NCBI RefSeq assembly: GCF_032854445.1
Contig: NC_088303.1
Span: 4,533,501-4,597,500 of the forward strand
DNA: 64,000 nucleotides
From: Liolophura sinensis
Taxonomy: Eukaryota; Mollusca; Polyplacophora; Chitonida; Chitonidae
Reading direction: 5' to 3'
Each line of letters opens with the position of its first letter. Position 1 is the stretch's first letter. Made by a program: the position numbers and the translations under genes. The notes beneath the pieces were generated by a model. The model was not told where the DNA came from. It was given only the letters and a program-made list of their open reading frames with translations, and did not search any database. Shown piece by piece: positions 59,301 through 62,300 of the stretch.

Positions 59301-62300
59301 GCAGTCAGACAGTGGAATCTACAAGTTACCTCAGGTGCAAGGCAAGTTTTCAACTTGCACCTTGACCTCACATTTGAGCCAACACAAATTCAAAAATTAA
59401 GTGATAAGTCAATAAAAAACTACTTGCCGGCGAAGATAAGAAAAGGTTTGGCAGTATGGTGGCATCATGGTTGATGATCATACAGTTAGGGCTCTGTAAC
59501 CTTTTGACCTGGTGTGTCATCAGGTAACACCGTTTGTTGTCGTTGTCATTGGCAACAACAAACCCCTCTGGAACACATCAAGAATGATATCACTAAGGAA
59601 TTGTGTAGAGAAATACTTTGAAGAATTCATATTGATTGGTTAATGTTAAATGCCTTCCTCAAGAATATTTCTAATGAAAATGTAAATGATCTCCACAAAC
59701 TTCATTCATGACCAACCAAACGCTTTTATGGCTGTGCTCTATTAACTGAGCCGTTTTAGACCTGCATCTACTCAAACAGTCACTGGCACTAAAATACATT
59801 ACTGACTTGGGATAGCTGTGCTCTCAGCACTGTGTAAGTATTCTATTAACTGAGCCGTCTTACACCTGCAGTCACTGGCACTAAAATACCTTACTGACAT
59901 GGATAGCTGTGCTCTCTGCACTGTGTAAGTATTCTGTTAACTGTGCTGTTTTAGACCTGCATCTAAATCAGTCACTGGCACTAACATGCATTACTGATCT
60001 GGAATGGCTCTGCTCTCCTCACTGTGTTAGAACTGTATTCACTGTGCTGTTTTAGACCTGCATCTAATCAGTCACTGGCACTAACATGCATTACTGATCT
60101 GGAATGGCTCTGCTCTCCTCACTGTGTAAGAACTGTATTCACTGTGCTGTTTTAGACCTGCATCTAATCAGTCACTGGCACTAACATGCATTACTGATCT
60201 GGAATGGCTGTGCTCTCCTCACTGTGTAAGTACTCTATTCACTGTACTGTTTTAGACCTGCATCTAATCAGTCACTGGCACTAACTTGCATTACTGACCT
60301 GGAATGGCTGTGCTCTCCTCACTGTGTAAGTACTCTATTCACTGTGCTGTTTTAGACCTGCATCTAATCAGTCACTGGCACTAACATGCATTACTGATCT
60401 GGAATGGCTGTGCTCTCCTCACTGTGTAAGTACTCTATTCACTGTGCTGTTTTAGACCTGCATCTAATCAGTCACTGGCACTAACATGCATTACTGACCT
60501 GGAATGGCTGTGCTCTCCTCACTGTGTAAGTACTCTATTCACTGTGCTGTTTTAGACCTGCATCTAATCAGTCACTGGCACTAACATGCATTACTGACCT
60601 GGAATGGCTGTGCTCTCCTCACTGTGTAAGTACTCTATTCACTGTGCTGTTTTAGACCTGCATCTAATCAGTCACTGGCACTAACATGCATTACTGACCT
60701 GGAATGGCTGTGCTCTCCTCACTGTGTAAGTACTCTATCAACTGTGCTGTTTTAGAACCAGGAGCTGCACAGAGATCAAGGACCTGAAAAAAAAAAAACA
60801 GGATATATTCATGAATCATAATAAATCATTAAGGTTGTGATTTTAATACATGTCATTGATATACTTATTTATTTATCTGACTAGTGTTTCATGTTGTACT
60901 CAAGAATATTTCACTTATACAACGGTGGCCAGAATTAGGGTGGTAGGATACCACGCAGAGCCCATGGGAAACTCACAACCATCCGCAGTCTGCTGGCAGA
61001 CCTTCCTACGTACGGCCAGAGAGGAAAATACATGTAATTGTGAACACTTACAGTAATGCCTGATAAGACCTGTAGATGATTATTTATTTGATTGGTGTTT
61101 CACGCCACACTTGAGAATATTTCAGTTATGCGATGACAGATAGCATTATGGTTTTTTAAACCCATACTCAAGAATATTTCACCTATGATCTCTAATATAC
61201 TTCATGAAAGTCAGCCATGAAGTCAATGCACGTGATTTACTCTCACCAATGTCCGTAAAACAGAGAAGCCAGAAAAAATTTGCCTGTCCTTCTATTGGAA
61301 TCTATATATTAATTTGAAAATGGTACAATTTTGTATGCTTGCAAAATAGCTGTACTCAATAGAGTCAAAAGGAATGCTTTAAAAAAGACTTTGTGTCAGA
61401 TGAAATTACAGCTTATCCAGGAGTGTAAGTCTTTAGGGTTGGTGGATATATAACAAATGTAATCAGTCAGGTTAGATGTACACCATTACAAGGGCAGCTG
61501 TTTATTACATTACAAGCTGCCTGTTGTTATATGCCATACACAAGCATTTTTCATTTTTCACAAGCATAACAGCCATTTTTATGGGTTTTCCCAGCTTTGG
61601 CAAGTCTCTGACAAACTTCACCATGTATGACAAGCAGACTTGCAGACCACTGGTGCAAGATTAGCAGTCTTCCCCAACAGTAAGGCTGCCAAAATGACTT
61701 TACAAGCACCGACAATGACTGACTATCACTAAGTTCCCTACAAACAATGAGAGCAAGTCTACTAATTCCCTATTCAAGGCCAAAATTGAATCCACACCTA
61801 TGTGCACTGACCAATCAGATATGTGTCGCTCTATGTTAGAGTCGACAAAACTTTACTCAGTTACTGGATAACTCACTATCCAATAGTTTGCATCACATTT
61901 AGTCTGGTTACCTACGGTGACAGACATGACAGAGCATCTTGGGACACTACATTATGTAACACCAACTGTTCACATCATATCTCACAAACTATATAATTTC
62001 AATTAGAGCTAGATGTCTACTGCAGTAGCACTTCATTAACAACTGAAATGCTCAGATAGTACAGGGAGTGGGTACCTTGTGGTGAGATTTGACATCCAGT
62101 AGGATGGGTGGGATCATACTGACAGCTTCCTGCCGGCTGATGTTGCCCTGGAAACACAAAAACAAAGCTGAATTGTAAAGTCATTTGTTCTTCAACAGTT
62201 ACTTTTGAATGACATAAGGTCTGGACCATGGCGAAGTTACTCATTTCACATGATTCTACTCATCTTACAAGGTGTTTTGAGGAAGTTGGTAGGATTTCCT

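What the first reader, a model, noticed from the sequence alone, without database searches (positions are those of the whole stretch)
59727..60783. Tandem array made of an NSUN2 exon's 3' half plus its splice donor
Seen: a 100-bp unit repeated about ten times, each copying the last roughly 55-60 bases of the coding exon at 60699-60783 (after the SAM-binding motif) and its intronic flank. The genuine exon is the terminal unit. Each unit also has AGATGCAG ahead of the exon-like part, so AG...GT pseudo-exons of 59 nt are possible in units keeping GTCAGT. Read in the phase set by a preceding unit, such an exon meets a TAG stop quickly. Inference: the array may act as a set of decoy or poison exons that tune NSUN2 splicing, or it is a neutral minisatellite born at an exon border.
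Basis: partly seen in the sequence, partly recalled or inferred. Interest (0 to 1): 0.8.

Follow-up and report, generated by a model that had tools for sequence, protein, structure and literature searches.

The report
Splice-site minisatellite in chiton NSUN2
A chiton gene carries ten stacked, decaying copies of the end of one of its exons together with its splice signal, an arrangement known as a "mirage" in lancelets and seen here at several other chiton genes too, so it looks more like a tolerated, partly fossilised repeat than a splicing switch.

Summary
On the minus strand, NSUN2 exon 60783-60699 is followed in its intron by 10 units (seven of 100-101 bp, one of 91, one of 104, one truncated), each copying the exon's last 58 nt, the donor and about 42 nt of intron. 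Three of 10 keep the full donor CAG|GTCAGT, 5 of 10 keep GT; later donors or a 59-nt pseudo-exon give an early stop. A poison-exon device is not supported, though no RNA data were at hand.

The assembly is the chiton Liolophura japonica. The array fits the "mirages" of amphioxus: minisatellites over exon-intron borders, reported not to disturb splicing. NSUN2 has a second (52587-52197). Of 80 exon loci from three families, 5 hold a donor-spanning and 1 an acceptor-spanning array.

New detail: the most distal complete unit differs from the exon at 10 coding sites, 8 of them third positions (P about 0.002), like a fossil of an older exon. Against pure neutrality: in six other arrays GT is kept better than other columns.

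The parts
60699..60783 (-). NSUN2 coding exon with SAM-binding motif; phase-1 donor CAG|GTCAGT (G of GT at 60698); its last 58 nt are the first unit of the array
59956..60656 (-). seven proximal units K1-K7 (100-101 bp), 93-98% identical to the exon unit; all with TGA for the exon's TTG; donors intact in K1, K2, K4, GT lost in K3, K5, K6, K7
59865..59955 (-). unit C8 (91 bp), mosaic: 5' part like proximal units, 3' part like B9; donor CAT|GTCAGT
59761..59864 (-). unit B9 (104 bp), reads [19 protein letters not shown]; 8 of 10 coding differences from the exon at third codon positions; donor CAA|GTCAGT
59727..59760 (-). unit A10, truncated by an internal deletion; ACG GCT TTA codons as in B9; no donor; far edge approximate
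59428..59567 (-). next NSUN2 exon ([15 protein letters not shown]...), acceptor after the array; appears to use a GC donor (CCG|GCAAGT)
52197..52587 (-). second donor-spanning array in NSUN2: exon end ...EEEFWPPI, donor CAA|GTAAGT (G of GT at 52560), four intronic units at spacings 87, 85, 85, 85 bp; 3 of 4 with donor GTGTTG, the last with GTAAGT

Best explanation
The array is a 'mirage': a minisatellite that began as a tandem duplication across an exon-intron border and grew into the intron. Shown: the exon's 3' end, its donor and the intron flank are copied about ten times, the true exon is the 5'-most copy, and the same anatomy recurs at other genes of this chiton. Inferred: it persists because splicing uses the exon-proximal donor, so the mRNA is unchanged and the copies drift. 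Inferred from codon patterns: it grew in at least two waves. The distal units were copied from an older version of the exon. The proximal units come from a later version, through a founder that turned the TTA codon into TGA; the exon later went from TTA to TTG. The array is then a by-product with a partial fossil record of the exon, not a regulator.
For: Unit anatomy. The true exon is the 5'-most copy in all seven donor-spanning arrays found: NSUN2-a, NSUN2-b, L018 (24), L017 (25), L024 (31), L076 (43), L032 (61). 5 of 80 sampled loci hold donor-spanning arrays and 1 of 80 (L033) an acceptor-spanning one with the true exon last. Arrays (period 15 or more, 2.5 copies or more) cover 8.9% of the flanks of the 80 loci but 0.6% of the matched coding DNA, as expected if arrays arise widely and are lost where they break exons. 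In NSUN2-a GT is not kept: 4 of 16 against 33 of 528 cells. B9 differs from the exon at 10 coding sites, 8 third positions (P 0.0023), 2 amino-acid changes (P 0.0007); C8 5 of 7 (P 0.041; for few amino-acid changes P 0.083); proximal K7 1 of 6 (P 0.93). Identity to the exon falls with distance in NSUN2-a (rho -0.93). Amphioxus mirages are reported not to disturb splicing.
Against: No RNA data: use of the first donor is inferred. Three downstream donors equal the true one. In six other arrays taken together GT mismatches in 3 of 130 cells against 223 of 2173 elsewhere (Fisher P 0.001; column-pair permutation P 0.025; the split from NSUN2-a was made after seeing the data; all seven arrays together P 0.056 and 0.16), which may mean that donors in the units are kept by selection. 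By eye, the intron flanks of B9 and the exon differ at 2 aligned sites plus an indel, fewer than the third positions do, so the fossil story needs later homogenisation of the flanks. Identity falls with distance clearly in 2 of 6 arrays tested. No outgroup was available to say which codon states are ancestral. B9 was tested after seeing the alignment.
Confidence: 0.72

Rival explanations
1. The downstream donors are decoys or poison sites: a share of pre-mRNA uses 60598, 60498 or 60298, or a 59-nt pseudo-exon, makes a premature stop and is degraded, so copy number sets NSUN2 output.
For: Three downstream donors are identical to the true one; use of any of them gives a stop at codon 31 of the exon frame (the exon holds 28 whole codons), and the 59-nt pseudo-exons give TAG. 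Read past the true donor, a stop is the 2nd to 4th codon in 5 of 6 arrays and the 15th in the DDX52-like one. In six other arrays GT is kept better than other columns. In human CBS a 31-bp repeat over the exon 13-intron 13 border is listed with higher homocysteine and lower activity.
Against: In this array 5 of 10 intronic units have lost GT and GT is no better kept than other columns; pseudo-acceptors are poor in pyrimidine; amphioxus mirages are reported not to disturb splicing.
Confidence: 0.14
2. Ongoing gene conversion or unequal exchange between array and exon also rewrites the exon, so the exon's present codons (GAG where B9 has GCT, and several synonymous ones) came from the array, and exchange now threatens to bring in TGA.
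For: The exon unit and K1 are identical over 100 bp except the TTG/TGA codon, just where copying would break the frame; C8 is a mosaic, so exchange within the array happens.
Against: Direction cannot be set without an outgroup; recent duplication from the exon explains the same identity.
Confidence: 0.25
3. Assembly artefact: a repeat collapsed or expanded by the assembler.
For: Repeats are error-prone to assemble; the published coverage is 14x HiFi.
Against: Units differ in an ordered way (K6/K7 share changes, C8 and B9 share changes), and arrays of the same anatomy occur at other genes. Exact copy number remains unverified.
Confidence: 0.03

Closest known systems
Mirages of amphioxus (Adh3, globin genes BflGb6 and BflGb9, others)
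   Same: Minisatellite-like tandem copies of an exon-intron border; many but not all units carry splice signals; array ends escape homogenisation (passages of PMC3087553; of PMC3902484).
   Different: Here a mollusc, with such arrays at seven genes in a small sample, and a distal unit whose differences from the exon are mainly synonymous. Normal splicing is reported there (RT-PCR), untested here.
CBS 31-bp repeat over the exon 13-intron 13 border, and CBS 844ins68
   Same: Copies spanning a splice border of a coding gene (passages of PMC2630376; a table row of PMC1395315).
   Different: Human polymorphisms; 844ins68 is one extra copy of the intron 7/exon 8 border; different unit sizes; no sign of shared origin.
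Minisatellite with multiple splice donors in an interferon-induced transcript (6-16/IFI6)
   Same: By its title, a minisatellite providing several donors (seen only in reference lists).
   Different: Paper not seen; gene name and splicing details are recalled.

Membership tests
mirage (minisatellite of an exon-intron border) | tandem units that each span an exon-intron border | tested here: met
   58 nt exon + donor site + about 42 nt intron in units K1-K7; C8 and B9 the same with small indels; A10 truncated
mirage (minisatellite of an exon-intron border) | true exon lies at one end of the array | tested here: met
   exon unit starts at 60756, array runs only into the intron
mirage (minisatellite of an exon-intron border) | regular splicing not disturbed | not testable with these tools
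mirage (minisatellite of an exon-intron border) | copy-number variation between haplotypes | not testable with these tools
   one assembly; one search found the array DNA at this locus only
poison exon / regulated decoy splice site | usable acceptor and donor around an exon with a stop | tested here: inconclusive
   stops present and 3 donors intact; pseudo-acceptors 41% pyrimidine (9 of 10) or 53% (1 of 10) against 53-94% at 12 real ones, a crude measure
poison exon / regulated decoy splice site | splice signals conserved above background in the units | tested here: inconclusive
   not in NSUN2-a (4 of 16 against 33 of 528 cells); yes over six other arrays (3 of 130 against 223 of 2173; column permutation P 0.025, split made afterwards)

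The most novel reading that the evidence does not exclude
Border-spanning minisatellites are a genome-wide feature of this chiton, at several per cent of exon loci, at donors and less often at acceptors. They exchange sequence with their exons, so that each array stores dated copies of its exon and stands as a source of new introns and of in-frame stops; in some arrays the extra donors are kept by selection, giving genes with ranks of near-identical donors.
Probability: 0.42. Interest if true: 0.7.

Novelty: new member of a known kind. Interest (0 to 1): 0.5.

Why it matters
Mirages were described in amphioxus and proposed as raw material for new introns. Finding such arrays at seven genes of a mollusc (NSUN2 plus six of 80 sampled loci) suggests a wider phenomenon in minisatellite-rich genomes. 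Each is a natural test of how splicing picks among many near-identical donors. If distal units really store older exon versions, they give an internal record of repeat growth and gene conversion at a constrained exon.

Tried and rejected
Poison-exon reading: weighed with stops, acceptors and GT conservation and given low weight for this array. My first GT test (9 of 136 against 245 of 2473, P 0.24, six arrays) pooled everything and had unit C8 aligned one base off (2 of the 9 mismatches not real). The recount dropped C8, added the DDX46-like array and showed better-kept GT outside NSUN2-a; I lowered the main confidence from 0.75 to 0.72 and raised the decoy rival from 0.12 to 0.14 for that. 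Donor-like motifs in array consensus units: 18 of 57 arrays scored 7 or more of 9 against about 10 in mononucleotide shuffles; weak, not used. A pure donor preference: after a matching acceptor scan I found the acceptor-spanning array in L033, so the asymmetry (5 against 1 in 80 loci) is not claimed as significant. Both scans (60, 63) asked for 40 open codons and candidates were judged by eye, so exons with shorter frames can be missed; units were counted by ungapped match of 70% or more, so units with indels are left out (for example the first one in L018). That the unit start keeps traces of the exon's 5' part was looked at by eye only and dropped. In one search one real acceptor (near 56125) was set 2 nt off.

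Papers: passages of PMC3087553, PMC3902484, PMC11068029, PMC2630376, PMC1395315, PMC2915984, PMC2572611 and PMC12783039 (earthworm metallothionein: intron minisatellites, and copies of an exon that do not appear in transcripts); the rest as search listings. Canestro 2002 and Lievers 2001 are not held. No title or abstract start listed by searches (15 of 16 listed) and 69 pointed to border minisatellites in chitons or other molluscs; a Conus gene-structure paper in the list was not opened; only the open library was searched.

Full report
OBSERVATION. The window lies in a 609-Mb assembly of 632 contigs. Contig C1 is 96,433,062 bases and C9, which holds the window, 37,343,639. These equal the longest scaffold and the N50 of the published Liolophura japonica (chiton) assembly of 632 scaffolds and 609.5 Mb (passages of PMC11068029). 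The gene on the minus strand is NSUN2: 325 residues joined from its exons match solved NSUN2 at E 1.4e-124 and Pfam PF01189 at 3.7e-36. TRF scores the array up to 1645; 100 shuffles of the stretch reach 47 at most.

ANATOMY. Exon 60783-60699 is 85 nt and ends in phase 1 at CAG|GTCAGT. Its last 58 nt plus 42 nt of intron form a 100-bp unit. Ten further units follow in the intron. K1 and K2 are identical to each other and differ from the exon unit at 2 of 100 sites, both in the codon TTG/TGA. C8 and B9 differ from it at 14 of 91 and 20 of 100 aligned sites; some of these come from the alignment around small indels. A10 is truncated.

SPLICING CONSEQUENCES. Using donor 60598, 60498 or 60298 instead of 60698 adds GQ and a stop. 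A 59-nt pseudo-exon adds GLKQHSE and a stop. Pseudo-acceptors have 41% pyrimidine at -20..-4 in 9 of 10 units and 53% in one; 12 real NSUN2 acceptors have 53-94%, so the best pseudo-acceptor equals the weakest real one on this crude measure.

ARE THE DONORS KEPT? In NSUN2-a no: GT mismatches in 4 of 16 cells against 33 of 528 elsewhere, and 62 of 66 neighbouring column pairs do as well or better (C8 left out because of a one-base shift). In six other arrays taken together yes: 3 of 130 against 223 of 2173 (Fisher P 0.001 on cells, which are not independent; P 0.025 by column-pair permutation). All seven together: 7 of 146 against 256 of 2701, P 0.056 and 0.16. The split was made after seeing the numbers. 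So this array shows no sign of kept decoys, but the class may.

CODON PATTERN. B9 against the exon: 9 changed codons, 7 of them synonymous, 8 of 10 changes at third positions. Random placement of the same changes reaches that in 0.23% of 50,000 trials, and as few amino-acid changes in 0.07%. C8: 5 of 7, P 0.041 (amino-acid changes P 0.083). K7: 1 of 6, P 0.93. The simplest reading is that divergence between the exon and the distal units built up under coding constraint, on the exon's own line, while proximal units drifted freely. In the second NSUN2 array the two sites where all four units differ from the exon are both third positions, which agrees but is too few to test. At no site do all counted units differ from the exon in the other three arrays with variation, so they neither support nor refute this. 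In the exon's TTG codon, distal units have TTA and proximal units TGA. TTA to TGA is one change, TTG to TGA two, so the proximal founder probably predates the exon's TTG.

OTHER CASES. NSUN2 has a second donor-spanning array (52587-52197). To judge frequency I used the loci that the tool cut for three families: 30 of 76 Helicase_C matches, 20 of 20 AAA, 30 of 150 Ras. These are the best-scoring ones, and several top Ras hits span the whole domain in one frame. The 80 loci hold 51 distinct arrays (period 18 or more, 2.5 copies or more) in 39 loci. Five have donor-spanning arrays: L017 (Helicase_C), L018 (nearest solved chain DDX41), L024 (nearest a SWI/SNF-related chain, taken as SMARCAD1), L032 (DDX46; a neighbouring exon, not the matched one), L076 (Ral-A). 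One has an acceptor-spanning array with the true exon last: L033. Its exon matches Helicase_C at E 0.0016, below Pfam's cut-off, and no solved chain; the same locus was brought in by a Helicase_C match further on. In L075 the array reaches the acceptor and no more than 5 nt of exon, and in L047 it starts just after the donor. In the other 74 loci no border-spanning array was recognised, within the limits of these scans.

INTERPRETATION. Arrays cover 8.9% of the flanks of these loci and 0.6% of the matched coding DNA. The simplest account is that minisatellites arise widely in this genome, those that break exons are lost, and those that copy a border but leave one intact exon and signal are tolerated. 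That is what has been called a mirage in amphioxus (passages of PMC3087553 and PMC3902484), where RT-PCR results are said to suggest normal splicing and where a route to new introns was proposed. Membership by sequence anatomy is met; the splicing and copy-number features could not be tested.

LIMITS. No RNA, no second individual and no related species were available. The codon test was made after seeing the alignment and rests on ten differences. The frequency estimate rests on 80 loci chosen by score.

Noticed in passing
window 59427-59422 (minus strand): The NSUN2 exon after the array seems to end at a GC donor (CCG|GCAAGT), the choice that keeps the frame into the next exon.
   Followed up: partly
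window 47867-48849 and 48905-49530: 58-bp units, 17 copies at 99% match, next to a 56/113-bp array; a 381-codon open frame runs through the region on the + strand.
   Followed up: no
window 5429-5835: 29-bp unit, 14 copies, 100% match by TRF, so very recent or homogenised.
   Followed up: no
L033:229-656: Acceptor-spanning array: units hold CTGCAG and about the first 28 nt of a helicase exon, followed by GTTTGG in the intronic copies, so possible mini-exons.
   Followed up: partly
L075 minus strand, acceptor at about 1687: A Rab-like exon whose acceptor lies in the last unit of a long 29-bp array, without a clear pyrimidine tract.
   Followed up: partly
L047:1664-2190: Array starts right after the donor of an AAA-domain exon, and its units contain CTGTAGGTG, which looks like an acceptor.
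   Followed up: no
L018:1643-2501: DDX41-like array: 20 of 20 counted intronic units keep GT, 16 of 20 the exact ATG|GTGAGT; the best place to ask whether extra donors are kept for a reason.
   Followed up: partly
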